A stretch of 64,000 bases of DNA from Streptomyces sp. NBC_01197 (lineage in GTDB: Bacteria; Actinomycetota; Actinomycetes; Streptomycetales; Streptomycetaceae), in NCBI RefSeq assembly GCF_036010505.1, contig NZ_CP108569.1, positions 6,583,501 through 6,647,500 of the forward strand, given 5' to 3'. A program made the position numbers and the translations under genes. A model generated the notes under the pieces. The model ran no database searches. It was not told the origin of the DNA and saw nothing but the letters and a program-made list of their open reading frames with translations. Position 1 is the first letter of the stretch; each line of letters starts with the position of its first letter. Below are positions 37,040 to 49,737 of this stretch, in pieces.

Positions 37040-37120
37040 AACTTGATCTTTGACCTGTGCGGCGTGGTCGTGGGGATGTTGACTTCTTCGTTCGCTGTTT
37101 CGCAGGTTGAAGATCAAGTT
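37040..37120. repeat. Imperfect inverted repeat, MITE-like
   Basis: The left arm (37040-37061, starting AACTTGATCTTTGACCTG) and right arm (37101-37120, ending AGATCAAGTT) are near-complementary over about 20 bp, separated by 39 bp. The sequence is less GC-rich than its surroundings and carries no gene. It could be a small non-autonomous element or a long hairpin between pxpA and the mukF-like gene. Confidence 0.5.
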
Positions 37121-37217: not shown

Positions 37218-38744
37218 GTGACTTCGCCTGCCCCGACGGAATTCGTTCCGCCCCAGCTCAGCGCGGGGCCGCGCCCCGCACCGGGCCCGGCCGCCGACGA
37301 AGGGCTGGCGCGGCGGCTGCGCGCACTCGCGTGCACCGCCCCGCTGCACGACCTCGATGTGCGCAAGGCCAATCTGGCCGGCGAGTACACGGTCTACGCG
37401 ATGGCCGAGGTGGCGCTCGCCGCGATCGACCTGGTCACGCTCAACATGGACTTCGACACTGGGGCCGACCACGACCAGATAGTGGCGAGGCTGCTGCCGC
37501 GCGTCGCGGCCCAGGCCCCGCGCCGCCCGGCGGACGAGCACGAGCGGGTGGCCCGCTGGGTGCTGGAGAACCTGATCAATGTCGGCAGCGTGGACCGTGG
37601 GTTCCGCGCGGTCTACGGCACGTTCGGTCCCGACGGTGAGTACGTCCGCCGTGACTACGACTTCAAGCTGGTCGAGGAAGTGCCGGGTCACGGCGGCACC
37701 GTCTATCTGCGCACCACCGACGAAGCGGTCAACGTCCTGGTGGGCGCCCTCGACACGGATGTCACCAGCGCGCAGATCGCCGCCGAGGTGAAGCTGGAGG
37801 TGCTGATCAGCCGGGGCAGGCTCGCCGACGCCCAGCTCGCCGCGGAGCAGGCCCGGTACCGGACCGTGCAGTACGCCGAGACGTTGCGCAGGACGCTGGA
37901 GGCGACCCGGCGCAACGTCCGCGCGGTCGACTGGCTCAGGACCGTGCCCGACATGATCGACGAAGCCCTGGACCACGTGGCCGACCGCTACCGCCATGAG
38001 AACGCGATCCTCACCAACATCCGCAAGGCCAGGGACGAGACGGAGGAGCCCGAGCACAAGCGGCGCGCCGCCGAGCTCGTCGACATCGTCAAGGACTGCA
38101 TCCGCCGCCACACCCAGCTCCAGTCCCGGCTGCTGGAGGCGGGGCCTCTTTTCCGCGCCGAGCAGGACCGGCAGGCCTTCGCCCCGCCGGCGGCGAGTTC
38201 CGGACTGGATCTGTACGGACAGCTGGTCGCCCCCGTACTGCCACTGCCGCTGGAGCAGGCCATCCGGGTCACCGACGCGTTCTTCGCACGGGGCACCGGA
38301 CTCCGTACCCCCGTGTCGGTACGGGTCGGGGACCTGGTCGACATCCTGCTGACGCCACCGGCCGAGCGGGAGCACCTGGGCGCCGAGATGCCCGAGCCCG
38401 ACCTCATCGCGACACCGGACGACAGCCGGTTCAGTGAGGGCCAGCTGGCAGCCGCGATGGAGTTGCTCGACCTGGAGCACGACGCCCCGCGCCGGCTCTC
38501 CGGTCTGCTGGCCGAAGCCCGGCTGCGCGATCCGGAACTGCCCTATCTGGTCGCCCTGCTGGCCATCCACGCGGCCAGCCCGCCGGTCGGCACCGCGTAC
38601 CGGCAGGGTGAGGAACGCCTGCTCTTCGCCGTGGACGACGGCACCGATCTGGACGACTCCGAGTTCGGCGGTGCGGATCTGATAGTGGGGACGGCCCTCC
38701 TGGACACCGTCGGAATGGCCGCGGGCCGTACGGAGTCCGCATGA
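37218..38744 (+). CDS. Kleisin-like (MukF/MksF/JetA-type) protein of SMC operon
   Basis: A 508-residue mostly helical soluble protein, first gene of a three-gene operon ending in an SMC-like ATPase. By position and size it corresponds to MukF/MksF/JetA, the kleisin that bridges the SMC heads. An N-terminal winged-helix-like section (LAGEYTVYAMAEVALAAIDLV to HERVARWVLENLINVGS) is followed by KLVEEVPGHGGTVYLRTTDEAVNVLVGAL, recalling the 'read-through' strand before the helical bundle of MksF. Then come long helices (QIAAEVKLEVLISRGRLADAQLAAEQARYRT) and a C-terminal globular region. No catalytic motif is seen. GTG at 37218 lies 12 bp after a TAATCT -10-like hexamer, so the transcript may be leaderless. 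Assignment rests on context and fold impression. Confidence 0.55.
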   Translation: MTSPAPTEFVPPQLSAGPRPAPGPAADEGLARRLRALACTAPLHDLDVRKANLAGEYTVYAMAEVALAAIDLVTLNMDFDTGADHDQIVARLLPRVAAQAPRRPADEHERVARWVLENLINVGSVDRGFRAVYGTFGPDGEYVRRDYDFKLVEEVPGHGGTVYLRTTDEAVNVLVGALDTDVTSAQIAAEVKLEVLISRGRLADAQLAAEQARYRTVQYAETLRRTLEATRRNVRAVDWLRTVPDMIDEALDHVADRYRHENAILTNIRKARDETEEPEHKRRAAELVDIVKDCIRRHTQLQSRLLEAGPLFRAEQDRQAFAPPAASSGLDLYGQLVAPVLPLPLEQAIRVTDAFFARGTGLRTPVSVRVGDLVDILLTPPAEREHLGAEMPEPDLIATPDDSRFSEGQLAAAMELLDLEHDAPRRLSGLLAEARLRDPELPYLVALLAIHAASPPVGTAYRQGEERLLFAVDDGTDLDDSEFGGADLIVGTALLDTVGMAAGRTESA

Positions 38745-38883
38745 ACCTCCGGCAGGACGCCCCGTACACCCCGGGCGCCCGGGCCGGGAAGTCCGGGAGG
38801 CCGGAAGCCCGGCGGCCAGGAGGCGGGGCGCAGCCACGACCCGGAGCGCAGCACAGAACGACACCGACCGAGGAGCAGCAGCT

Positions 38884-39783
38884 GTGAGCGAGACCCACGC
38901 CGAGCACACCGCGTGGAGCGAGCCCGACCAGGCCGGCACCGCCGTGCCGCCGGCCGGCCCGGCGGTGACCCCGGCCGACGCCGCCGACGCGGCGCGTCTC
39001 GTCGCCTTCGGACTCCAGCCGAAGCTGCTGCCCGCCCGTGACGCCGAGTACGCGGAGCTGCTCCGCCGCTACCGCGAGGCGCCCGCCTTCGCCCGGCTCG
39101 CCGACGCTGTCGCCACCGGACTCGGCCTGGTCGTCCTGGAGGTCTCGACCCGGGCCGGCATGGCCGTGGCCGCAGGGGAGGACTCCGTCTTCGCCGTACG
39201 TATGGGTGACTACGCGCGCCGCGCCGCCGCCGACTCGGCCGACCGCTTCCTGCACGGGCTGGCCCATCTCGCTGTCGCCGCCATGTCCTTCCCGCGCCCC
39301 GAAGACCTCGCCGACGACGGGTACATCGGCCGGATCACGGTCAACGGCGTCGACGCCTTCGTCCGCCAGGCCTGCCGCCGGCTTGAGGAGCGGGCCGACG
39401 AACAGGGCGAGAACAGCGACCCGGCCACCGACACCCCCGGGCTCGAAGCCGCCTGGCGGATCTACGCGAGGCGCAGCTCCACCGGAGCAACCAAGGACGC
39501 CAGGCGCCTGGCCGGCTCCACCACCGGGATCGTCGCCAAGACCGTTGTGTTCCTCACGGATTCGGGGTTCCTGCAGCGCACCGGCGACGACGCCGGAGGC
39601 GCGTACCGCACCACCGCCCGCTACCAGCTCCAGGTCCGCGACATGGCGGGCAGCGCCGCCATGGCCGAGCTGCTCGACCTGGGGGTCGTACCGGTGACCG
39701 ACGGCACGGCCACACTGCTGCCGCCCTCCGGGACGGACGACCTCGAACTGACCGCCGACGCAGGACTCCCCTTCCACTCCTGA
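38884..39783 (+). CDS. KITE-like (MukE/MksE/JetB-type) protein of SMC operon
   Basis: A 299-residue protein between the kleisin-like and SMC-like genes, the place and size of MukE/MksE/JetB. GTG at 38884 follows GAGGAG. A disordered Pro/Ala-rich N-terminus (about 1-45) precedes two probable winged-helix units: YAELLRRYREAPAFARLADAVATGLGLVVLEVST, and ATKDARRLAGSTTGIVAKTVVFLTDSGFLQ with a strand pair YRTTARYQLQVRDM. Two tandem winged helices are the hallmark of KITE subunits. No enzymatic motif is present. The spacing to the SMC gene is 63 bp. Function inferred from operon structure. Confidence 0.5.
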   Translation: MSETHAEHTAWSEPDQAGTAVPPAGPAVTPADAADAARLVAFGLQPKLLPARDAEYAELLRRYREAPAFARLADAVATGLGLVVLEVSTRAGMAVAAGEDSVFAVRMGDYARRAAADSADRFLHGLAHLAVAAMSFPRPEDLADDGYIGRITVNGVDAFVRQACRRLEERADEQGENSDPATDTPGLEAAWRIYARRSSTGATKDARRLAGSTTGIVAKTVVFLTDSGFLQRTGDDAGGAYRTTARYQLQVRDMAGSAAMAELLDLGVVPVTDGTATLLPPSGTDDLELTADAGLPFHS

Positions 39784-39846
39784 CCAGCCCCTTCCTGACC
39801 AGTACCTGAGTCAGATCCCGCACCACAACGACGAGAGTCCGCCGCC

Positions 39847-42800
39847 ATGTACGAGCTGTCCCGGGTCCGCCTCTACTCGATCGGGCCTGCCGGTGCGCGC
39901 TACGCCGACACCGTGCTCGACCTGCGGGGAGTGGGCGCCCCCGTGCCCAGCCCGGCCCCGGCCCAGGCGGAGTTCTTCGAGGAGGAACCGGTCGGCCCGC
40001 CGCGCCGCCCCGCGCCCGCTGGTGTCCTCTTCCTGGAGAACGGCGGGGGAAAGTCGGTCCTGCTGAAGCTGATCTTCTCGGTGATGCTGCCGGGCCACCG
40101 CAACACGCTCGGCGGCGCCAGCTCCGGTGTCCTGCGCAAGTTCCTGCTCGCCGACGACTGCGGCCATGTGGCCCTGGAGTGGCAGCACACCCTCACCGGT
40201 GAGCTCGTCGTGGTCGGCAAGGCCAGCGAGTGGCGCGGCCGGCAGGTCTCCAACGACCCGCGGAAGTTCGCCGAGGCCTGGTACTCGTTCAGGCCGGGCC
40301 CCGGGCTGAGCCTCGACTCCCTTCCGGTCGCCGAAGCCACCACCGTACGGCCGCCGGCGGAGGGCGTCTCCGGGGCGCGGGGCAGGCGCCGGACCATGAA
40401 GGGCTTCCGGGACGCGATCACCGAGGCCGGCAAGTTCTATCCCCATCTGGACGTCCACTGGGAGGAGATCCACGACCGCTGGAACGAACACCTGGGCGAT
40501 CTGGGCCTCGACCCCGAACTCTTCCGCTACCAGCGCGAGATGAACGCTGACGAGGGCGAGGCGGCCGGTCTCTTCGCGGTCAAGAAGGACTCCGACTTCA
40601 CCGATCTGCTGCTGCGGGCCGTCACCGACACCCGCGACACGGACGGCCTGGCCGACCTCGTCGGCAGTTTCGGCAGCAAGCTCGGGCGCCGCGCCGAACT
40701 CACCGCGGAGCGCGACTTCACCGCGGGCTCGGTCGATCTGCTCGGGCGCATCGTCGACGCCGCGGCGGCGCGCTCGCGGTCCAGGGACGTCCACGCGGGC
40801 GCCGAGCGCCGTACCCGCACCCTCGCCCGCCGACTCTCCGCCCGCGCCGCCGAAGAGCGGGGCCGCGCGTCCGACCTCGCCCAGCAGGTCACCTCCGCCG
40901 CCCACACGGTCACACAAGCCGAGGAGGCCCGTGGCCGCAGCGCGCTGATCGCCGCGGAACTGGCCTACCGGCACGCCTCGTTGGCGCTCACCGTCGCCGA
41001 GAAGGCCGCAGCGGCCCAGCGCAGGGAGCTGGCCGACGCGCGGACGTTCCACTCGGCGTGGCAGGCGGCCGAGGCGGTACTGAGGCACCGCGCGGCGGCC
41101 GACCGGTCCGCCCGGGTCGCCGTGGCCATCCGGGAGGCCGAACGGGACGCCGCCCCGGCCCTGGCCGCCCGGGCCACCGCGGCGGCCGACCTGGTCCGCG
41201 CGCTTCACGCGGCGGCCGAGAGCGGCGAGCAGCTCGCCAACGAGGAGGAGGAGCGCGCGGCCGTGCTCCAGACGGCGGGCGAGGCGGCCCACCGCGACGC
41301 CACCGCCGCGGCGACCGAGGCGCAGCGCGCCCGCAGCGAGGCCGGGCACCTGCGCCAGCGCCTCACCGAAGTCGCCCAGGAGACCTCCGAGGCCGTTCGC
41401 GCGGGCTGGCTGGACGACACCGCGCCCGACGCGGATCCGGCGCGCGCCGCTCTGGCGGCCGGTGACGCGGAGAAGTCAGCGGTCGCCGCCTGGGAAACCG
41501 CCCGCGAGCAGGCGCGGGCCACGGCGGACGAGGCCAGGGAAGCAGCCTCCCGGGAGAGCCGGGCCGACCTCGCCGCCGCCCGGGCCGCGGATGCGGCGCG
41601 GGCCGCCGAGCACGTGTACGAGGCGGAGCTGCACATCGCCGAATCCATCGCGGCTGAGCCCCGGCTGGCCGACCTGCTCGGCCTGCCCGCACCCTCCTCA
41701 GCGGGGTCAACCCCGGTACCCGGTAAGGCTGTCGGGCTGCCTCAGCCCCGTAACGGCACGGTGCCCCCGGCTACGGCCCGGCCCCGGGGCACGGCCACCG
41801 CAGGCCCGGCCGACGACGCGGAGTCAGGGTGCTCCGGAGCCGCCGGCGACCGCGAGCCGGAGAGCCACGCGCGCTCCCTCACGCGCGGCCGGCTCACCGC
41901 AGCCGAACTGGACCGCAACGTGGAAGAACTCCGGGAACTGCTCGACGGGGGCGTCGCATCGGCCGAACGGCAGCTCTTCGAGCTGCGCACCGCCGCGGCG
42001 GACGACGCCCGCATCCTCGGCGCACTGGGCGACGGCGGGCTGCTGCCGCCGGGACCCGATGTGCTGGCCACCGTGGAATTCCTCGGCGAGCACGGCATCC
42101 CCGCACTGCCCGGCTGGCGCTATCTCGCCCAGGCGGTGGACCCCGCCGACCACGCGGCGGTGCTGGCCGCCCGCCCCGAGCTGGTCGACGGTGTGGTGAT
42201 CACCGATCCGGCCGCGCACGGCCGGGCCCGGTCCGTACTGGGCGGGGCCGCCCTGCTGCCGCGCTCCGCGGTCGCCGTCGGCACCGCTTCCGCGCTGCTC
42301 GCACCGGTACCGGGTCCCGGCCCGTCCGGTACCGGGGACGGCGACGTGTTCCTCGTACCGCCGAACCCGGCCATGCACGACGAGCACGCCGCCGACGAGG
42401 AGCGGCAGGCGCTGCGCTCCCGTGCGGGCCGGCGCGACGAGGAGATCCGCACACTCGCGGCCCGGCTGGGCGGCGACCGGACCCTCGCCGCCCGGCTCGG
42501 CTCCTGGCGGGCCGCCTGCCCGCCCGGGACGCTCGCCGAACTGGCAGCGGCCGCGAGCGGCGCGCAGGACGCCGCCGGGGCCGCCACCGCCGCACTTGAG
42601 GAAGCCCGTACCGCCCGGGCCGAGGCCGACGAGGCCGCCGCCGACGCCGCCCGGGTACGCGACGAACGCCAGGACAACGCCCAGCGCGCCCGGCGAGTGG
42701 CCGACGTGCTTTCCGGACTCGCCTTCCGGCTCCGCGAACGGGCGGGCTGGCAGGTCACCCTGCGCGAACTGGGCGACGAGGCGGCCCAGTCGGAATCCCG

Positions 42801-44691
42801 GGCCGCGGCCTGCCTGGAGCGTGCCAGGGCCGCCGACGAGGACCGCAGGGCCGCCCAGCGGGCCGCCGACGACGCGCGCCGCACCGCCCGGGCGCTGCGG
42901 GCCGAGAGGTCCGAGATCGCGGGAGTGCCCGAGGACCTGCCCGAACCGGACGCGGGCGCGCAGCGCTCCGCCCTTCCTGCCCTGCGGGAGGCCTACCGGG
43001 CAGCATCCCAGCTGTACGAGAAGGTCGGCGTCGGAGCCGACCTCCGGGCCGAGCAGGCCAGGGCCGAGAGCGACGAGAGCGCGGCCCGCGCCGAGCTGGA
43101 CCGGCTCTCCAACAAGGTCCGTACCCGCGCCTCCCAGCTGCTCGAATCCACCGACGGCGCCGACGGCCCGTCCCGGCAGGCGGCCGCGGCCCGCGCGGAG
43201 TCGCTCGTACAGATGCTGGAGACACGGGCGTCGGCCGCCAGCGAACAGCTCGGCCGGCTGCGCGGCGAGGCCGAGCGGCTCGCGCCCGAGGACGGCGCGG
43301 ACGCCCACACCGAGCTGCCCGACGGGCTGGCACCGGCCGACGCGGATGCCGCACAGACCCTGCTGCGCACCGCCACGGCCGAACTGGGCGCCCGCACCGA
43401 CGCGTTGGAGACCGCCCGAGAGGCCCATGCCGAACTGCTGCGCGCCCACCGGGCGTCGGAGGACGCGGCGGGCGGTTTCGACGAATCGGCAGCCCTGCTG
43501 CGGGATTTGCTCCGTGACCCGCACCAGGACGACGAGAGTGCCGAATCCACGCCGCCAGAGCCGTACCCCGGCAGCCAGGAGGAGGCCCGCGAGTCGGCCG
43601 CCGAGGCCCGCCGCTCACTGCGCGCCTGCGCCGGCGACCTTTCGGCGGCCGAGTCGGCCGTACGGGAGGCGAGCGACATCCTGGTACGCCATGCCAACGC
43701 CACCCGTTACGAGCAGGTCCGCACCCCGGCACGGCAGCAGATCCGTGAACTGCCCGCCGCCGCGCTCCCCGAGCACGCCGGGAAGTGGGCGGCGGCCTTC
43801 GCGCCCCGGCTGCGGGTGCTCACCGATGAACTGGAGCAACTGGAGCGCAACCGGGACTCGATCGTCGACCGGCTGCGTGGCCTGGTGGAGTCCGCGCTCA
43901 CCACACTGCGCTCCGCCCAGCGGCTCTCCCGGCTGCCAGAGGGGCTCGGGGAGTGGTCGGGCCAGGAGTTCCTGCGGATCCGCTTCGAGGAGCCCGACCA
44001 GGCCACCCTCGCCGAACGGCTCGGCGAGGTCATCGACGAGGCGACCAGGGCGGCCCTGAAGAAGAACTCCGATCTGCGCAGGGACGGGATGTCTCTGCTG
44101 TTGCGGGCAGTCCATGCGGCGCTCGAACCCAGGGGCGTGGCCGTAGAGATCCTCAAGCCGGACGCCGTGCTGCGGGCCGAGCGGGTCCCGGTGGGGCAGA
44201 TGGGAGACGTCTTCTCCGGCGGACAGCTGCTCACCGCGGCCATCGCCCTCTACTGCACGATGGCCGCCCTGCGCAGCAACGACCGGGGCCGTGACAGGCA
44301 CCGGCACGCGGGCACGCTCTTCCTCGACAACCCGATCGGCCGGGCGAACGCCACGTATCTGCTGGAGCTCCAGCGTGCGGTCTCCGACGCCCTCGGCGTC
44401 CAGCTGCTCTATACGACGGGGCTGTTCGACACCACAGCGCTCGCCGAGTTCCCGCTGGTCATCAGGTTGCGCAATGACGCGGACCTCCGGGCGGGGCTGA
44501 AGTACATCAGCGTCGAGGAGCATCTGCGGCCGGGCCTTCCGCAGCAGGACTCCGGCGGGGAGCAGGTGCACGGCGAGATCACCGCGACCCGGATGTTCAA
44601 ACGGGCCCAGGGGGCACAGAGCACCCAGCCGTCCCAGCAGCCGTCCGAGACGTCCCAGGCGGGCCGGACGGGGACCCACGGGCGGCCCTGA
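39847..44691 (+). CDS. SMC-like ATPase (MukB/MksB/JetC-type)
   Basis: A 1614-residue SMC-type protein. The head's N-terminal half contains Walker A LFLENGGGKSVLLKL (GGGKS at about 66-70). Coiled coil begins near 310 (Ala/Glu/Arg-rich heptads). A central globular hinge-like domain occupies about 690-850, with ILGALGDGGLLPPGPDVLATVEFL, GWRYLAQAVDPADHA and VDGVVITDPAAHG. A second coiled coil runs to about 1390. The C-terminal head carries the ABC signature VFSGGQLLTAAIALYC (about 1456) and Walker B TLFLDNPIGRAN (about 1490), then QLLYTTGLFDTTAL. The shape (1.5-kb arms, mid hinge, Walker A and B at opposite ends) is that of MukB/MksB/JetC. It would load on DNA with the two upstream proteins and act in chromosome organisation or plasmid restriction. 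No JetD nuclease gene follows. ATG start; very high Ala/Arg content. Confidence 0.8.
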   Translation: MYELSRVRLYSIGPAGARYADTVLDLRGVGAPVPSPAPAQAEFFEEEPVGPPRRPAPAGVLFLENGGGKSVLLKLIFSVMLPGHRNTLGGASSGVLRKFLLADDCGHVALEWQHTLTGELVVVGKASEWRGRQVSNDPRKFAEAWYSFRPGPGLSLDSLPVAEATTVRPPAEGVSGARGRRRTMKGFRDAITEAGKFYPHLDVHWEEIHDRWNEHLGDLGLDPELFRYQREMNADEGEAAGLFAVKKDSDFTDLLLRAVTDTRDTDGLADLVGSFGSKLGRRAELTAERDFTAGSVDLLGRIVDAAAARSRSRDVHAGAERRTRTLARRLSARAAEERGRASDLAQQVTSAAHTVTQAEEARGRSALIAAELAYRHASLALTVAEKAAAAQRRELADARTFHSAWQAAEAVLRHRAAADRSARVAVAIREAERDAAPALAARATAAADLVRALHAAAESGEQLANEEEERAAVLQTAGEAAHRDATAAATEAQRARSEAGHLRQRLTEVAQETSEAVRAGWLDDTAPDADPARAALAAGDAEKSAVAAWETAREQARATADEAREAASRESRADLAAARAADAARAAEHVYEAELHIAESIAAEPRLADLLGLPAPSSAGSTPVPGKAVGLPQPRNGTVPPATARPRGTATAGPADDAESGCSGAAGDREPESHARSLTRGRLTAAELDRNVEELRELLDGGVASAERQLFELRTAAADDARILGALGDGGLLPPGPDVLATVEFLGEHGIPALPGWRYLAQAVDPADHAAVLAARPELVDGVVITDPAAHGRARSVLGGAALLPRSAVAVGTASALLAPVPGPGPSGTGDGDVFLVPPNPAMHDEHAADEERQALRSRAGRRDEEIRTLAARLGGDRTLAARLGSWRAACPPGTLAELAAAASGAQDAAGAATAALEEARTARAEADEAAADAARVRDERQDNAQRARRVADVLSGLAFRLRERAGWQVTLRELGDEAAQSESRAAACLERARAADEDRRAAQRAADDARRTARALRAERSEIAGVPEDLPEPDAGAQRSALPALREAYRAASQLYEKVGVGADLRAEQARAESDESAARAELDRLSNKVRTRASQLLESTDGADGPSRQAAAARAESLVQMLETRASAASEQLGRLRGEAERLAPEDGADAHTELPDGLAPADADAAQTLLRTATAELGARTDALETAREAHAELLRAHRASEDAAGGFDESAALLRDLLRDPHQDDESAESTPPEPYPGSQEEARESAAEARRSLRACAGDLSAAESAVREASDILVRHANATRYEQVRTPARQQIRELPAAALPEHAGKWAAAFAPRLRVLTDELEQLERNRDSIVDRLRGLVESALTTLRSAQRLSRLPEGLGEWSGQEFLRIRFEEPDQATLAERLGEVIDEATRAALKKNSDLRRDGMSLLLRAVHAALEPRGVAVEILKPDAVLRAERVPVGQMGDVFSGGQLLTAAIALYCTMAALRSNDRGRDRHRHAGTLFLDNPIGRANATYLLELQRAVSDALGVQLLYTTGLFDTTALAEFPLVIRLRNDADLRAGLKYISVEEHLRPGLPQQDSGGEQVHGEITATRMFKRAQGAQSTQPSQQPSETSQAGRTGTHGRP

Positions 44692-44706: not shown

Positions 44707-45132
44707 TCAGGACTGCGGCGACAGCCGCCCGGAGCGGGTACGTATCCGTTCGGCGTCCCCCTCCTGCCGACGGGCCGAACGCCGTGCCGAACGCCGGGCC
44801 GTGCGCCGCTCCTTGCGGAGCCGGCGGGCGGTGCTGCTGGGGGCGGATGTCACCCCATGGCGCTGGTTCCACACCTGCCGGGTGATCCAGACGTCCAGCA
44901 CCGCCCAGGTCGCCACGACCGTACTGGCCACACTGCTCAGCACCATCGGGAAGGCGAGCCAGGAGCCCGTTACGGTGGAGAGGAAGGCCGTCACCGCCTG
45001 GATCAGCGTCACGGACACGATGAGCACCGCACGCACCGCGCTTGTGCGCACCGGATCCGGCAGCCGGTACCGTCCGACCGGCTCCTCGACCCACAGCGTC
45101 CGCAGGGGGGCCTCGCCCTCTTCGATGGTCAT
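44707..45132 (-). CDS. Small membrane protein with basic tail
   Basis: A 141-residue protein. ATG at 45132 follows AAGAGAG. An N-terminal cytoplasmic stretch (EAPLRTLWVEEPVGRYRLPDP) precedes two hydrophobic segments (about 38-58 and 62-88, VLIVSVTLIQAVTAFLSTV and LSSVASTVVATWAVLDVWI). A strongly basic tail follows with repeated RRxARRSARR. Family not recognised. The basic tail could contact membrane lipids or nucleic acid. It is tail to tail with the SMC-like gene, 15 bp apart, and divergent from the conservon. Confidence 0.72.
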   Translation of the reverse strand: MTIEEGEAPLRTLWVEEPVGRYRLPDPVRTSAVRAVLIVSVTLIQAVTAFLSTVTGSWLAFPMVLSSVASTVVATWAVLDVWITRQVWNQRHGVTSAPSSTARRLRKERRTARRSARRSARRQEGDAERIRTRSGRLSPQS

Positions 45133-45509
45133 GCTCTCTTCACCCTCGACCTTCACGCCTCGGCGCTGTCCGACTCCAGAACGGATGCCCGGCTTGGGTC
45201 GGTTCAAGCGTCCCCGCCCGTGGTGCGCCCCTCGGACGCAAGGACGAACAACTGACCTCAAAGATTCCCGCCATTCATTGAATTCCAGCCATCTGGGCAG
45301 GGGCGGAAAGTGCCGTCCTGCCAGGATTCTCTGACCGGAACAGGGAAGACGATCTGCTGGGATACCAGGACATGGCGTGATCAACTCCTCTGCGGTCGGC
45401 TGAAAATAGACCGGACGTCTCTTCGAGTTGCCTGTGCGGCAGTAGTAGGCTCACGCCGTTTGTTGACGGAACACCACCCCCGCCGGGCGGGGTTGAGCTG
45501 GGGGAGGCC
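45133..45509. other. 377-bp divergent region before the conservon
   Basis: No gene is seen. It contains a promoter-like pair for cvnA (TTCGAG at 45422-45427, 18-bp spacer, TAGGCT at 45446-45451). A G/C hairpin, CCCCGCC-G-GGCGGGG (45478-45492), lies just before the GGGGGAGG ribosome binding site and could hinder translation. Confidence 0.5.
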
Positions 45510-48308
45510 ATGCGCTTTCGCGGGAAGTCCATCCGCAGGAAGATCGTGGCGCTGTTGCTGGTCCCACTTGTCGCGTTGACGGCGATCTGGACGTTCTCCG
45601 TCTATCTCACCGGCCGGGACGCCCTGCAACTGATGCGCACCGGAACTGTCCACAAGAGCGTGGCGCACCCGCTCGTCGTCGCCCTTGGGTCGGTGGAGGA
45701 GGAACGCTCCCTGACCCTGCGCCAGCTGGTCGATCCGGGAGCCTCGGACACCCAGTCCCAACTGCGCACCCAGCGCGCGGACACCGACGCGGCCGTGGCC
45801 CAGCTGCGCAGCAGCTCCGCGCGGAGTGACGCCCGTTCCGCGATGGGCGCGCACTCCGAACGGCAACTGCGCAACGTACTCGACGGGTTCGCGGGACTCG
45901 GTTCGCTGCGGCACAACACCGGCGACCACGAGGTGACCCGGCGCGAGGCGTACGACCAGTACAACCGGCTCTGCGACCAGGCGCTCGACTTCCTGGCCGA
46001 CCTGCCCACCCTGCAGAACTCAGGGCTCGACAAGGAGGCGCGCGGCCTCGTCGGCGTCAGCCGGGCCCGTGAGTCCCTCTCGCGTGAGGACGCGCTCCTC
46101 GGTTCCGCCCTCACATCCGGACGGCTCGACTCCAGTGACCTGCGCGACATCTCGGACCTCGTCACCGCACGCGAGGTGTACTACACGGACAGCCTCCCCT
46201 CGCTGCCGGGCCGGGCGGGCGACGCGTACAGGGAGTACTGGAGCGGACCCGCGACCATCCCGGTGCGCACCGCCGAATCCACCGTGCTGGGCAAGAGCCC
46301 CGGCAGCTCCTCCATCACGGGCTCCGCGTCCCGCTGGACCACCGACGCCGACCGGACGCTCAGCCATCTCGACACGCTGGGAACCGAGGCCCGCAAGGAC
46401 TTCCAGAACCGGGTGAGGCCCGCGGCCGTCGGCGTCTTCGCCAAGGCCGGGATCGCGGCACTGCTCGGCGTCGGCGGACTGCTGGTCTCCCTGGTGGTGT
46501 CCGTGCGCATCGGCCGCGAACTGATCCGCGACCTCAGCAGACTGCGCAAGGAGGCCCACGAGGTCTCCGGGGTGCGGCTGCCCGCCGTGATGCGCCGGCT
46601 CGCGGCCGGGGAGCAGGTCGACATCGAAACCGAGGCGCCGCGCCTTGAGTACGCGAAGGACGAGGTCGGCCAGGTCGGCCTGGCCCTCAACACCGTCCAG
46701 CGGGCCGCCGTCGAAGCAGCGGTGCGCCAGGCGGACCTGCGCCGCGGGGTCTCCGACGTCTTCGTCAACCTCGCCCGCCGCAACCAGGTCCTGCTGCACC
46801 GCCAGCTGACGCTGCTGGACAGCATGGAGCGCCGTACGGAGGACACCGAGGAACTCGCCGACCTGTTCCGCCTCGACCACCTCACCACCCGTATGCGACG
46901 GCACGCCGAGGGCCTGGTGATCCTCTCCGGAGCCTCACCCTCCCGGCAGTGGCGCAAGCCGGTCCAGCTGATGGACGTCGTACGAGCGGCGGTCGCCGAG
47001 GTCGAGGACTACGAGCGGGTCGAGGTACGGCGGCTGCCGAGGATCGGGGTCGGCGGCCCCGCCGTCGCCGACCTCACGCACCTCATCGCCGAACTCCTGG
47101 AGAACGCCACGGTCTTCTCGCCCCCGCACACAGCGGTGCAGGTGCTGGGCGAGCGAGTCGCCAACGGCTTCACCCTGGAGATCCACGACCGCGGACTCGG
47201 TATCGCGCCCGACGCGCTGCTCGACGCCAATCTCCGTCTCGCCGAGACCCCCGAGTTCGAGCTGTCCGACACCGACCGGCTCGGCCTCTTCGTAGTGAGC
47301 AGGCTCGCGCAGCGGCAGAATGTGCGGGTCTCGCTCCAGCCCTCACCGTACGGCGGCACCACCGCCGTCATCTTCATCCCGGTGGCGCTGCTCACCGACG
47401 CCCCCGACAGTGATGCCCCGGACACCGACGGCACGGACGCCGGGTCCGGTATCGACGGCGCCGGATTCCGCTCCGACCGGCGGTCCGTCCACCGGCCGGG
47501 ACCGCGCTCCGGGCTCGCACCGGTGCCCACCGCAGGGCGCACCCCGGTGTCCGTGATCGACGGGCCCGTCGAACTGGAGCCGCCGGTAGACCCGTTGACG
47601 TTCGACGACACGGCGGATCTGGACGACGAGGACAGCGCACCGGGCGGGATCTTCCGCAACCGCGCCGTGGCCCCGGCACCCGACCAGCACCAGCAGACCC
47701 CCGACGAAGGCGCGGCGCCGCAGAGCGCCACACGTCCCGCCGGTCCGGCCGGACTGCCCCGGCGCCGTAAACCCGGACAGCCGACCCTCGTCTCCGACCA
47801 CGGGCGCAGGGTCGACATCCCGGCACCACCGCGGACCGATCCGTTGCGGAGGGAACCGCCGCGGAGCAAACCGCAGAGGACCGATACGCCGCCGACCGAT
47901 ACGCCGCCGACCGATACGCCGAGGGCCGAGCCGTCGCGGATCGAACCCCGGCGGGCCGGACTCCCGCAGCGCGTACCCCGGCGGACCGAACCGTCGAGGA
48001 CCGACCCCTCGCAGCCCGGACCACCGCGCACCGGCCCCCCGGTGGCAGGCCCCGGCGGGCTGCCCCGCAGAGTTCGCCAGGCGAATCTGGCCCCGCAGCT
48101 GAGAGGCGTGCCCGCAGCCGAACCGGCCACGGCGGACGACGATGAACGCGACGCGGACGAGGTACGCAGCCGGATGGCATCGCTCCAGCGTGGCTGGCAG
48201 CGGGGCCGCCGCGACAACGCCGCACAGGACTCGGCAGAATCAGCCGCAGTCGGCACCGGACCGGCCGGCACAGCACCAGGAACCACATCGGAGGGGACCG
48301 GTCGATGA
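45510..48308 (+). CDS. cvnA: Conservon sensor kinase CvnA
   Basis: A 932-residue membrane sensor with a histidine-kinase-like ATPase, first gene of a conservon. Segment 1 is at about 13-33 (KIVALLLVPLVALTAIWTFSV). A long extracytoplasmic helical sensor (nitrate-sensor-like) follows, then segment 2 at about 315-335. A HAMP domain leads to DLFRLDHLTTRMRRHAEGL (the conserved His region of CvnA) and the ATPase N-box HLIAELLENATVFSPP with DRGLGIAPD. After residue about 630 the tail is long, Pro-rich and repetitive (tandem TDTPP units from a 15-bp repeat at 47880-47921). CvnA is thought to pass signals to a small GTPase through CvnB and CvnC, resembling a eukaryotic receptor complex. The stop overlaps cvnB by four bases. 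Confidence 0.93.
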   Translation: MRFRGKSIRRKIVALLLVPLVALTAIWTFSVYLTGRDALQLMRTGTVHKSVAHPLVVALGSVEEERSLTLRQLVDPGASDTQSQLRTQRADTDAAVAQLRSSSARSDARSAMGAHSERQLRNVLDGFAGLGSLRHNTGDHEVTRREAYDQYNRLCDQALDFLADLPTLQNSGLDKEARGLVGVSRARESLSREDALLGSALTSGRLDSSDLRDISDLVTAREVYYTDSLPSLPGRAGDAYREYWSGPATIPVRTAESTVLGKSPGSSSITGSASRWTTDADRTLSHLDTLGTEARKDFQNRVRPAAVGVFAKAGIAALLGVGGLLVSLVVSVRIGRELIRDLSRLRKEAHEVSGVRLPAVMRRLAAGEQVDIETEAPRLEYAKDEVGQVGLALNTVQRAAVEAAVRQADLRRGVSDVFVNLARRNQVLLHRQLTLLDSMERRTEDTEELADLFRLDHLTTRMRRHAEGLVILSGASPSRQWRKPVQLMDVVRAAVAEVEDYERVEVRRLPRIGVGGPAVADLTHLIAELLENATVFSPPHTAVQVLGERVANGFTLEIHDRGLGIAPDALLDANLRLAETPEFELSDTDRLGLFVVSRLAQRQNVRVSLQPSPYGGTTAVIFIPVALLTDAPDSDAPDTDGTDAGSGIDGAGFRSDRRSVHRPGPRSGLAPVPTAGRTPVSVIDGPVELEPPVDPLTFDDTADLDDEDSAPGGIFRNRAVAPAPDQHQQTPDEGAAPQSATRPAGPAGLPRRRKPGQPTLVSDHGRRVDIPAPPRTDPLRREPPRSKPQRTDTPPTDTPPTDTPRAEPSRIEPRRAGLPQRVPRRTEPSRTDPSQPGPPRTGPPVAGPGGLPRRVRQANLAPQLRGVPAAEPATADDDERDADEVRSRMASLQRGWQRGRRDNAAQDSAESAAVGTGPAGTAPGTTSEGTGR
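47880..47921 (+). repeat. 15-bp tandem repeat in cvnA
   Basis: Nearly three copies of ACCGATACGCCGCCG, encoding TDTPP repeats in the disordered tail of CvnA. Likely variable in copy number between strains. Confidence 0.75.
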
Positions 48309-48742
48309 CCGTACCGAACGCAGCAGCACATAACGCCGCAGGGAGCCCCGGTGAGCTCAACTGGCTCCTCGACGAGCTCGTCGACCGGGTCGGCAGCATC
48401 CGCAAGGCGCTGGTCCTCTCGGGAGACGGCCTGGCGACCGGCACCTCGAAGGACCTGACCCGGGAGGACGGCGAGCACCTGGCAGCCGTCGCATCCGGTT
48501 TCCACAGCCTGGCCAAGGGCGTCGGACGCCACTTCGAGGCGGGCAAGGTCCGCCAGACCGTCGTGGAGCTGGACGAGGCATTCCTCTTCATCACGGCAGC
48601 GGGCGACGGCAGTTGCCTCGCCGTGCTGGCCGACGCGGACTCCGACGTCGGCCTGGTGGCGTACGAGATGACGCTGATGGTGAAGCGGGTCGGTGCCCAC
48701 CTCGCGACGGCCCCGCGGAGCGGGCTCACCGCAGGAGGTTGA
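48305..48742 (+). CDS. cvnB: Conservon roadblock/LC7 protein CvnB
   Basis: A 145-residue roadblock/LC7 protein, usually the GTPase-activating or docking partner in conservons. After a flexible start it reads GELNWLLDELVDRVGSIRKALVLSGDGLATGTSKDL, then FHSLAKGVGRHFEAGKVRQTVVELDEAFLFI and a DADSDVGLVAYEMTLM strand-helix end, matching the family closely. It overlaps cvnA by four bases. cvnC follows after 10 bp. Confidence 0.95.
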   Translation: MTVPNAAAHNAAGSPGELNWLLDELVDRVGSIRKALVLSGDGLATGTSKDLTREDGEHLAAVASGFHSLAKGVGRHFEAGKVRQTVVELDEAFLFITAAGDGSCLAVLADADSDVGLVAYEMTLMVKRVGAHLATAPRSGLTAGG

Positions 48743-48752
48743 GGGGGACACC

Positions 48753-49151
48753 ATGAGTGACGCGGGCCGACCACCGGCGCACCACTGGTTCGACGACGAC
48801 GCGGGCCCCGTGGTCCGGCCGTACGCCATGACACGCGGCCGTACCGGTTCCGACGGCGGCCACCGTCTCGACCTGATCGCACTGGTCGTCCCGGAGCCGG
48901 CCGCCGACGACCCGGGCAGGGACCAGACACTCTCGCCCGAGCATGTGGACATCGTCGAGCGCTGCAGCACCGCACCGCAGTCCATCGCCGAACTCGCGGC
49001 CGACTTCGACCTGCCCGTGGGGGTGGTGCGGGTCCTTGTCGGCGACCTCGTCGACGACGAACTCGTCCGTGTGACCCAGCCAGTACCGCCGGCGGAACTG
49101 CCGGATGTCAGCATTCTTCGCGAGGTAATCAATGGCCTTCGGGCGCTCTAG
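48753..49151 (+). CDS. cvnC: Conservon DUF742 protein CvnC
   Basis: A 132-residue DUF742 protein with a winged-helix-like fold. ATG at 48753 follows GAGGGGG. Conserved blocks: VVRPYAMTRGRT near the N-terminus, LIALVV, LSPEHVDIVERCSTAPQSIAELAADFDLPVGVVRVLVGDLVDDELV and the C-terminal DVSILREVINGLRAL. CvnC is part of the complex with CvnB and the GTPase. It overlaps cvnD by 20 bp, suggesting coupled translation. Confidence 0.95.
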   Translation: MSDAGRPPAHHWFDDDAGPVVRPYAMTRGRTGSDGGHRLDLIALVVPEPAADDPGRDQTLSPEHVDIVERCSTAPQSIAELAADFDLPVGVVRVLVGDLVDDELVRVTQPVPPAELPDVSILREVINGLRAL

Positions 49152-49737
49152 CCGCAACCAGCAGTTCGTCGAACCGGTGACCCTCAAGATCCTGGTGGCG
49201 GGCGGCTTCGGTGTGGGAAAGACCACGCTGGTGGGTGCGGTCAGCGAGATCAAGCCGCTGCGCACCGAGGAGACCCTGAGCGAGGCGGGCCGCCCGGTGG
49301 ACTCCACCGACGGCGTGGAACAGAAGACCACCACCACTGTCGCCATGGACTTCGGCCGCATCACGCTCAAGGAGGACCTGGTCCTCTATCTGTTCGGCAC
49401 ACCGGGCCAGGACCGCTTCTGGTTCCTCTGGGACGAGCTGGCGCAGGGTGCGCTGGGTGCGGTCGTCCTTGCCGATACCCGCCGCTTAGCAGACTGCTTC
49501 GCGGCCGTCGACTACTTCGAGCGCCGCTCCATCCCGTTCACCGTGGCGGTCAACTGCTTCGACGGTGCGGACCGTTACCCCGGGGAGACCGTGCGGTCGG
49601 CGCTCGACCTCGACCCCGATGTGCCCGTCCTGATGTGTGACGCGCGGGACCGGGAGACGGTGAAGGAGGTCCTGGTGGCCGTCGTGGAGCACGCCATGGC
49701 CCTCGCCTCCGGAGCCCGCGCGCACGCCGTCACCTAA
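49132..49737 (+). CDS. cvnD: Conservon GTP-binding protein CvnD
   Basis: A 201-residue Ras-like/SRPRB-type GTPase. P-loop GGFGVGKTTLVGAV (G1), switch region TTTTVAMDFGRI, G3 YLFGTPGQDRFWFLWD, a conserved GALGAVVLADTRRL, and G4-like VNCFDG. It completes the cvnABCD set. In S. coelicolor conservons influence antibiotic production and development. Its TAA stop lies inside the left arm of the MITE-like element at 49734. Confidence 0.95.
   Translation: MAFGRSSRNQQFVEPVTLKILVAGGFGVGKTTLVGAVSEIKPLRTEETLSEAGRPVDSTDGVEQKTTTTVAMDFGRITLKEDLVLYLFGTPGQDRFWFLWDELAQGALGAVVLADTRRLADCFAAVDYFERRSIPFTVAVNCFDGADRYPGETVRSALDLDPDVPVLMCDARDRETVKEVLVAVVEHAMALASGARAHAVT

What the first reader, a model, noticed from the sequence alone, without database searches (positions are those of the whole stretch)
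37218..44691. Three-gene MukFEB/JetABC-like SMC operon without a nuclease gene
Three consecutive plus-strand genes encode proteins of 508, 299 and 1614 aa. The third shows an N-terminal GGGKS Walker A, two long coiled coils around a central globular hinge-like domain, and a C-terminal FSGGQ signature with FLDNP Walker B: an SMC ATPase. The order and sizes mirror mukF-mukE-mukB (440/234/1486 aa in E. coli) and jetA-jetB-jetC of Wadjet. Streptomyces already has canonical SMC-ScpAB, so a second condensin would be notable. The JetD/MksG TOPRIM-type nuclease that defines Wadjet is not on either side: upstream is pxpABC on the other strand and downstream a small basic membrane protein. The system may be a chromosome-organising MksBEF relative, a nuclease-free variant, or use a nuclease elsewhere.
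Basis: partly seen in the sequence, partly recalled or inferred. Interest (0 to 1): 0.85.

Follow-up and report, generated by a model that had tools for sequence, protein, structure and literature searches.

The report
Nuclease-free Wadjet-derived SMC complex in Streptomyces
Streptomyces and their relatives almost all carry a three-gene DNA-folding machine that descends from a plasmid-destroying defence system but has lost its DNA-cutting subunit, so it is probably an overlooked second chromosome-organising complex.

Summary
In detail: a kleisin (A, 508 aa), a KITE protein (B, 299 aa) and an SMC ATPase (C, 1614 aa), without JetD. A and C match the PADLOC type III Wadjet profiles JetA3 and JetC3 (5e-188; 1388 bits); fold models of A and B resemble MukF and JetB/MukE. 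Three searches find no JetD in the genome. A core-type JetA is in 119 of 121 Streptomycetaceae genomes; strong JetD3 hits occur in only 10, each beside its own JetC or a JetC remnant. None of 80 named Streptomyces loci has JetD (75 hold 3 kb downstream). The nuclease-free operons form one clade in the A tree (98/96) and in a joined A+B+C tree (support 89); B and C trees leave one or two origins open. dN/dS is 0.06-0.20. The clade also occurs in a second family, probably Frankiaceae (by recall). Best reading: a type III Wadjet lost its nuclease and became a vertically inherited, MukBEF/MksBEF-like complex beside canonical SMC. Function on the chromosome is inferred, not shown. Nine open-access paper searches found no description of it.

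The parts
37218..38744 (+). gene A: JetA3/MukF-type kleisin, 508 aa
38884..39783 (+). gene B: KITE protein of the JetB/MukE kind, 299 aa
39847..44691 (+). gene C: JetC3-type SMC ATPase, 1614 aa
   Evidence: PADLOC JetC3 PDLC00588, 1388 bits
40036..40056 (+). Walker A, ENGGGKS, residues 64-70 of C
   Evidence: alignment of 26 JetC
41653..41973 (+). hinge-proximal linker of C, residues 603-709, variable in length, Ala/Gly/Pro-rich
   Evidence: 49% mean identity against 84-95% for hinge and heads; 0-262 residues, median 80, in 76 full-length C including the window's; 39-152 residues in 11 nuclease-free rows (3 of them within the JetD-bearing range) against 37-48 in 15 JetD-bearing rows
41974..42561 (+). 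putative hinge domain of C, residues 710-905
   Evidence: 84% mean identity between coil regions of 79-80%; a weak contrast, not modelled in 3D
44212..44226 (+). ABC signature FSGGQ
44320..44334 (+). Walker B FLDNP, Asn at the place where other SMC ATPases carry the catalytic Glu (that comparison is recalled)
   Evidence: LDNP in 26 of 26 JetC aligned, 15 JetD-bearing and 11 nuclease-free

Best explanation
The locus encodes a three-subunit SMC complex: JetC-type ATPase, JetA/MukF-type kleisin and JetB/MukE-type KITE. It descends from a type III Wadjet whose ancestor lost the nuclease JetD. It most likely works as Wadjet's motor without the scissors: dimers of C bridged by A, with B at the heads, bind DNA and extrude loops on ATP, so they compact and organise chromosomal DNA beside the canonical SMC-ScpAB, as MukBEF and P. 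aeruginosa MksBEF do. Shown here: subunit identities by profile and predicted fold, absence of a detectable JetD, grouping apart from JetD-bearing relatives, near-universal conservation in the family, purifying selection. Inferred: direction of the change (loss of JetD), loop extrusion, action on the chromosome, and any role in hyphal or spore nucleoids.
For: Subunits: JetA3 5e-188, JetC3 1388 bits; folds of A and B. No JetD in the 99.96% complete own genome: PF09983 best E 0.2, below cut-off; PDLC00594 none at E 0.01; own JetD alignment best E 0.67 over a 58-aa frame. JetC3 in 147 of 150 Streptomyces (accessory copies are counted in this). JetA3 in 120 of 121 Streptomycetaceae genomes; in G445 the only match is an accessory JetD-bearing copy, so 119 carry a JetA3 away from any strong JetD3, by the positions. 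Strong JetD3 (E<1e-40) in 11 of 150 and 10 of 121. All 11 of the genus draw lie against a JetC; of the 10 in the family draw, 9 do and that of G323 follows a 97-residue JetC remnant. One clade in the A tree (41 rows, 98/96) and in the joined A+B+C tree (29 rows, SH-aLRT 89, below the star limit), with JetD-bearing rows outside on two successive branches of support 100. dN/dS 0.06-0.11 (A), 0.08-0.16 (B), 0.15-0.20 (C), window against 10 loci. Among 72,556 plasmid records only 4 match A, all under 60% identity, and among 50,697 phage records none. Canonical SMC sits elsewhere in the genome. A review says that P. [quoted passage not shown]
Against: No experiment bears on function. C. glutamicum MksBEFG, an actinobacterial relative with nuclease, is reported to act only on non-chromosomal DNA (PMC7083940, passages). 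The B and C trees alone need two changes of state and do not settle one or two origins (B: one origin in 10% of bootstrap trees); no tree was rooted. In the second family only 19 of 35 genomes have JetA3. Walker B carries Asn at the catalytic Glu position, so ATP turnover is uncertain, though JetD-bearing relatives share this. G499 has no JetA3 and G445 only an accessory one, so the complex is dispensable in places; JetA reads in pieces in G498 and G505 and C in pieces in L167 and L190, which may be sequencing errors or decay. One IMG/VR contig carries an 89% identical A without B or C in the 10 kb held after it.
Confidence: 0.62

Rival explanations
1. It is still an immunity complex: without a nuclease it entraps, silences or sequesters plasmid or phage DNA by loop extrusion, in the manner proposed for Smc5/6.
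For: Close relatives with JetD look like accessory defence systems, some on plasmids. Passages of a review describe Smc5/6 acting against viral extrachromosomal DNA. In Streptomyces, Wadjet as called by DefenseFinder is enriched toward chromosome ends (PMC10482375, passages).
Against: Near-universal presence in the family (119 of 121), strong purifying selection and no copy of the core type among plasmid and phage records (but see the IMG/VR contig) are unusual for a defence system; the JetD-bearing cousins are patchy (10 of 121).
Confidence: 0.2
2. A diverged or unrelated nuclease encoded elsewhere completes the complex, making it a split Wadjet.
For: JetD families diverge fast: the Pfam model JetD_C misses some type III JetD, such as that of G007.
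Against: Three searches of the whole genome failed, while the same JetD3 profile finds strong hits in 11 other Streptomyces. None of 549 flank ORFs of the second family's loci has a relative among 835 flank ORFs of 18 Streptomycetaceae loci (E 1e-10, half length), so no fourth gene is shared beside the operon.
Confidence: 0.1
3. It is a decaying leftover of a former Wadjet.
For: Loss of one subunit; variable linker beside the hinge; a few loci with A or C in pieces.
Against: C is one ORF over 1400 aa in 75 of 79 loci, the other 4 running into contig ends; dN/dS 0.06-0.20; heads 94-95% identical across 75 Streptomyces loci.
Confidence: 0.02
4. It acts on other DNA business, such as repair or transfer of linear replicons or chromosome ends, rather than bulk chromosome folding.
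For: The operon lies 10-25% of chromosome length from an end in 23 of 29 single-contig genomes (29 of the 33 single-contig genomes were taken by hand).
Against: Many other genes sit there too; the sister clade lives in a family whose chromosomes I recall as circular.
Confidence: 0.06

Closest known systems
Wadjet type III (JetABCD)
   Same: A, B and C are homologous and in the same order; JetC Walker motifs shared; nuclease-bearing members occur as accessory systems in some of the same genomes
   Different: JetD not detectable at the locus or in the genome; near-universal in Streptomycetaceae; core type not found in the plasmid and phage records searched (one IMG/VR contig holds an A alone); linker near the hinge often longer and variable
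MksBEF of Pseudomonas aeruginosa (nuclease-free)
   Same: three subunits, no nuclease, coexists with SMC-ScpAB; thought to come from JetABCD by JetD loss (PMC10586767, passages)
   Different: no match of A, B or C to Pfam or NCBIfam models; groups with type III relatives of actinomycetes, so apparently a separate loss (inference; no MksB sequence was compared)
MukBEF of Escherichia coli
   Same: gene order F-E-B (recalled), predicted folds of kleisin and KITE subunits
   Different: no sequence match to the solved MukBEF chains; MukBEF replaces SMC-ScpAB, whereas here SMC is present
MksBEFG of Corynebacterium glutamicum (Wadjet type I)
   Same: actinobacterial SMC complex beside SMC-ScpAB
   Different: carries the MksG nuclease and acts on plasmids (PMC7083940, PMC10123090, passages); a different Wadjet type

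Membership tests
Wadjet (type III) | JetA kleisin | tested here: met
   JetA3 PDLC00567 5e-188
Wadjet (type III) | JetB KITE | tested here: met
Wadjet (type III) | JetC SMC ATPase | tested here: met
   JetC3 PDLC00588 1388 bits
Wadjet (type III) | JetD TOPRIM-type nuclease, called the signature protein of the operon (PMC12287153, passages) | tested here: not met
   none at the locus or in 80 related loci, none in the genome
Wadjet (type III) | cleaves small circular plasmids | not testable with these tools
   needs a plasmid restriction assay
MukBEF / MksBEF | three-gene kleisin-KITE-SMC operon without nuclease | tested here: met
MukBEF / MksBEF | sequence membership of curated MukB/MukE/MukF families | tested here: not met
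   no Pfam or NCBIfam family at E 1
MukBEF / MksBEF | kleisin and KITE folds | tested here: met
   MukF- and MukE-containing entries among the top fold matches; the match of A covers its helical part, about residues 169-321
MukBEF / MksBEF | organises the chromosome | not testable with these tools
   needs deletion and Hi-C
SMC-ScpAB | SMC_prok_B model | tested here: not met
   C has no NCBIfam match at E 1; the genome's canonical SMC is at C1:1918357-1922130
Lamassu | LmuB ATPase profile | tested here: not met
   only JetC3 profiles match C at E 1

The most novel reading that the evidence does not exclude
Streptomycetaceae have an overlooked, near-universal second condensin, born when a type III Wadjet lost its nuclease, that helps fold or segregate the multi-copy chromosomes of hyphae and spores; an independent case of immunity machinery turned into chromosome maintenance.
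Probability: 0.5. Interest if true: 0.87.

Novelty: new variant of a known kind. Interest (0 to 1): 0.76.

Why it matters
Streptomyces chromosome folding has been mapped and explained through SMC and HupS. Term searches of two such papers (PMC8410768, PMC13121528; passages) found no mention of a second SMC complex in Streptomyces. If this complex works on the chromosome, part of that picture is missing. It also gives a traceable example of a defence system becoming housekeeping by losing its effector, which has been proposed for MksBEF and MukBEF but is hard to see there because the sequences are so diverged. Relatives with and without JetD sit in the same genera, so the step can be tested directly. 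Defence-finding profiles label these proteins as Wadjet components, which risks miscounting.

Tried and rejected
All-against-all clustering of flank ORFs timed out and was redone on fewer loci, then across the two families. Sequence search of solved structures found no relatives: single proteins and profiles gave only coiled-coil or marginal chance hits, so fold comparison was used. C was too long to model (limit 1200 aa) and both prediction jobs went to A and B.

A trans JetD from accessory Wadjets was considered and rejected as a general answer: 139 of 150 genomes lack a strong JetD3. Loss of the Walker B Glu as an effect of nuclease loss was rejected, because JetD-bearing relatives share LDNP. 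An inverted repeat upstream of A looked like an operator, but was absent upstream of A in all 78 other loci tested. No Rfam match in the window; the promoter and terminator scan was uninformative. The weak JetD_C hit in the own genome (L001) was looked at: the overlapping ORFs printed show nothing I recognise as JetD, by eye only.

Papers: searches. PMC11329512 (mycobacterial MksB) was not held; I know it only from a reference-list line.
Full report
What is there. Three + strand genes, 37218-38744, 38884-39783 and 39847-44691, encode 508, 299 and 1614 aa. The window lies at 6.58-6.65 Mb of a 7.63 Mb contig in a 99.96% complete genome of two contigs; the second is about 80 kb by difference.

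No nuclease. In the own genome JetD_C (PF09983) finds only a sub-threshold hit (E 0.2), JetD3 (PDLC00594) nothing at E 0.01, and a profile of six type III JetDs built here only a 58-aa frame at E 0.67. Among 80 named Streptomyces loci (the best 80 of 518 relatives found, so biased to close ones), A is in 80 and B and C in 79. None has a JetD hit, and 75 hold at least 3 kb beyond C. As positive control, the same JetD queries found all 8 accessory loci, 4 of which supplied the queries.

Distribution. JetC3 is in 147 of 150 Streptomyces; the misses are G079 (78% complete), G112 and G116. Accessory JetC copies count in that number. JetA3 is in 120 of 121 Streptomycetaceae genomes and 17 of 17 genera; G499 has none, and G445, the only genome listed from its genus, has only a JetD-bearing accessory copy. 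That leaves 119 with a JetA3 away from any strong JetD3, by position. JetD_C is in 18 of 150. Strong JetD3 (E<1e-40) is in 11 of 150 and 10 of 121; weaker hits bring those tallies to 22 and 14, and the four weak ones of the family draw lie far from JetA3 or on other contigs. All 11 loci (L111-L121) have a JetC directly before JetD. Of the ten, nine have a JetC and the tenth, G323, a 97-residue JetC remnant. In a class-wide draw of 296 genomes JetA3 was found in 43: 28 Streptomyces and 15 of a second family, f18, in 5 of 114 genera. In the same draw 7 have JetD3 at E 1e-8; one, G293 of f18 on a 3.2-kb stretch, showed no JetC. In f18, JetA3 is in 19 of 35, and JetD3 with E<1e-30 in 5 of 35. The contig length of G186 (7,497,934) is what I recall for Frankia alni, so f18 is probably Frankiaceae; this rests on recall.

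Accessory relatives. JetABCD loci exist in some of the same genomes, 29-55% identical in A to the window (11 rows of alignment A2). In six of eight (L102-L105, L108, L109) the JetD ORF overlaps the end of C; in L106 and L107 it is there but its start was not placed. On plasmids, four records match A, all under 60% identity: a Rhodococcus linear plasmid copy (53%) has an annotated JetD right after C; a Streptomyces plasmid copy has an unnamed 382-aa gene there; two were not opened. Phage records have none. One IMG/VR contig carries an 89% identical A at its edge, with no B, C or D in the 10 kb held after it; I did not test whether it is viral.

Descent. In the A tree (57 rows) 41 nuclease-free rows are one clade (98/96). 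A 42nd row labelled nuclease-free, L176, is cut by its contig end inside C and groups with a JetD-bearing locus; its genome has a JetD3 on another contig. The program warned of long branches in this tree. The B and C trees need two changes but do not exclude one. A joined tree of 40 rows without the longest branches puts the 29 nuclease-free rows together (SH-aLRT 89, below the star limit), with JetD-bearing rows outside on two successive branches of support 100. The trees are drawn from the midpoint, not rooted; but the more distant rows of the A tree are all JetD-bearing, so loss of JetD, once before the two family clades split or twice, is the likelier direction. Each family's nuclease-free clade is well supported in the A, C and joined trees (f18 100, Streptomycetaceae 99/98 or 100); the B tree was not drawn.

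Selection and shape. Window against 10 Streptomyces loci: dN/dS 0.06-0.11 (A), 0.08-0.16 (B), 0.15-0.20 (C). In C, heads are 94-95%, hinge 84% and coils 79-80% identical across 75 loci, but the linker before the hinge is 49% and varies from 0 to 262 residues. It is 39-152 residues in 11 nuclease-free rows, 3 of them within the 37-48 of 15 JetD-bearing rows. Walker B reads LDNP in 26 of 26 type III JetC, with and without JetD.

Neighbours. In Streptomycetaceae a convergent membrane protein often follows C (12 of 18 loci). None of 549 flank ORFs of 14 f18 loci has a relative among 835 flank ORFs of 18 Streptomycetaceae loci, so no shared partner gene was found.

How it probably works. By homology to Wadjet and MukBEF, C dimers closed by A and B should load on DNA and extrude loops. 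In Wadjet the motor stalled on a small circle leads to cleavage by JetD (PMC12287153, passages). Without JetD the motor should act without cutting. Near-universal conservation next to a normal SMC fits housekeeping better than defence, but no functional data exist here. The immunity reading keeps a fifth of my belief.

Prior work. Nine paper searches over an open-access library listed no report of this complex that I could recognise from titles, abstracts and the passages opened. PMC10482375 (passages and one section) surveys defence systems in Actinobacteria with DefenseFinder, finds Wadjet in 42% of them and toward Streptomyces chromosome ends, and holds no occurrence of JetD. PMC10586767 (passages) proposes JetD loss for P. 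aeruginosa MksBEF. Subscription papers were not searched, so novelty is limited to what these searches cover. The source names shown for A's 120 best database relatives are mostly hypothetical protein, some DUF3375 or membrane protein.

Noticed in passing
window 44320-44334; 26 aligned JetC: Type III JetC proteins carry LDNP, with Asn at the usual catalytic Glu place of Walker B (recalled), in 26 of 26 rows including nuclease-bearing Wadjets; how they hydrolyse ATP is an open question.
   Followed up: partly
window 44707-45132, minus strand: A small basic membrane protein converges on the end of C; relatives lie there in many Streptomycetaceae loci (ORF 44707-45384 has hits in 51 of 80 loci; 12 of 18 loci), none among the flanks of the second family.
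   Followed up: partly
window 37040-37050 and 37110-37120: Exact 11-bp inverted repeat AACTTGATCTT / AAGATCAAGTT with 59 bp between the arms, upstream of A; absent upstream of A in 78 of 78 other Streptomyces loci tested.
   Followed up: partly
G090:C1:11107-15633 and 9223501-9228027 (L109, L208): An accessory JetABCD lies about 11 kb from both chromosome ends in mirrored copies, as if in terminal inverted repeats; the JetD match is shorter in the second copy.
   Followed up: no
L205 8267-13049, L207 7909-14883; L096: Wadjet-like clusters with a 518-523 aa JetD-like protein and, in L205 and L207, a short (1123 and 1023 aa) C that matches JetC profiles only weakly; the JetD-like gene is about 34 kb from both ends in G049 and G129 and internal in G012. 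Possibly an undescribed Wadjet type.
   Followed up: partly
29 single-contig Streptomyces genomes: The core operon sits 10-25% of chromosome length from an end in 23 of 29 genomes (29 of the 33 single-contig genomes), a steady place toward the arms.
   Followed up: partly
L209 10100-11397 (G323): A JetD3 gene follows a 97-residue remnant of JetC: a decayed accessory Wadjet that kept its nuclease gene.
   Followed up: yes
L202 1-1485: An IMG/VR contig of 30.9 kb begins with an 89% identical A but has no B or C in the 10 kb held after it; perhaps an element or rearrangement at the end of A.
   Followed up: partly
window 45510-49737: Conservon-like group next to the operon (name recalled): NIT/HATPase kinase, Roadblock protein and GTPase-like protein.
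   Followed up: no
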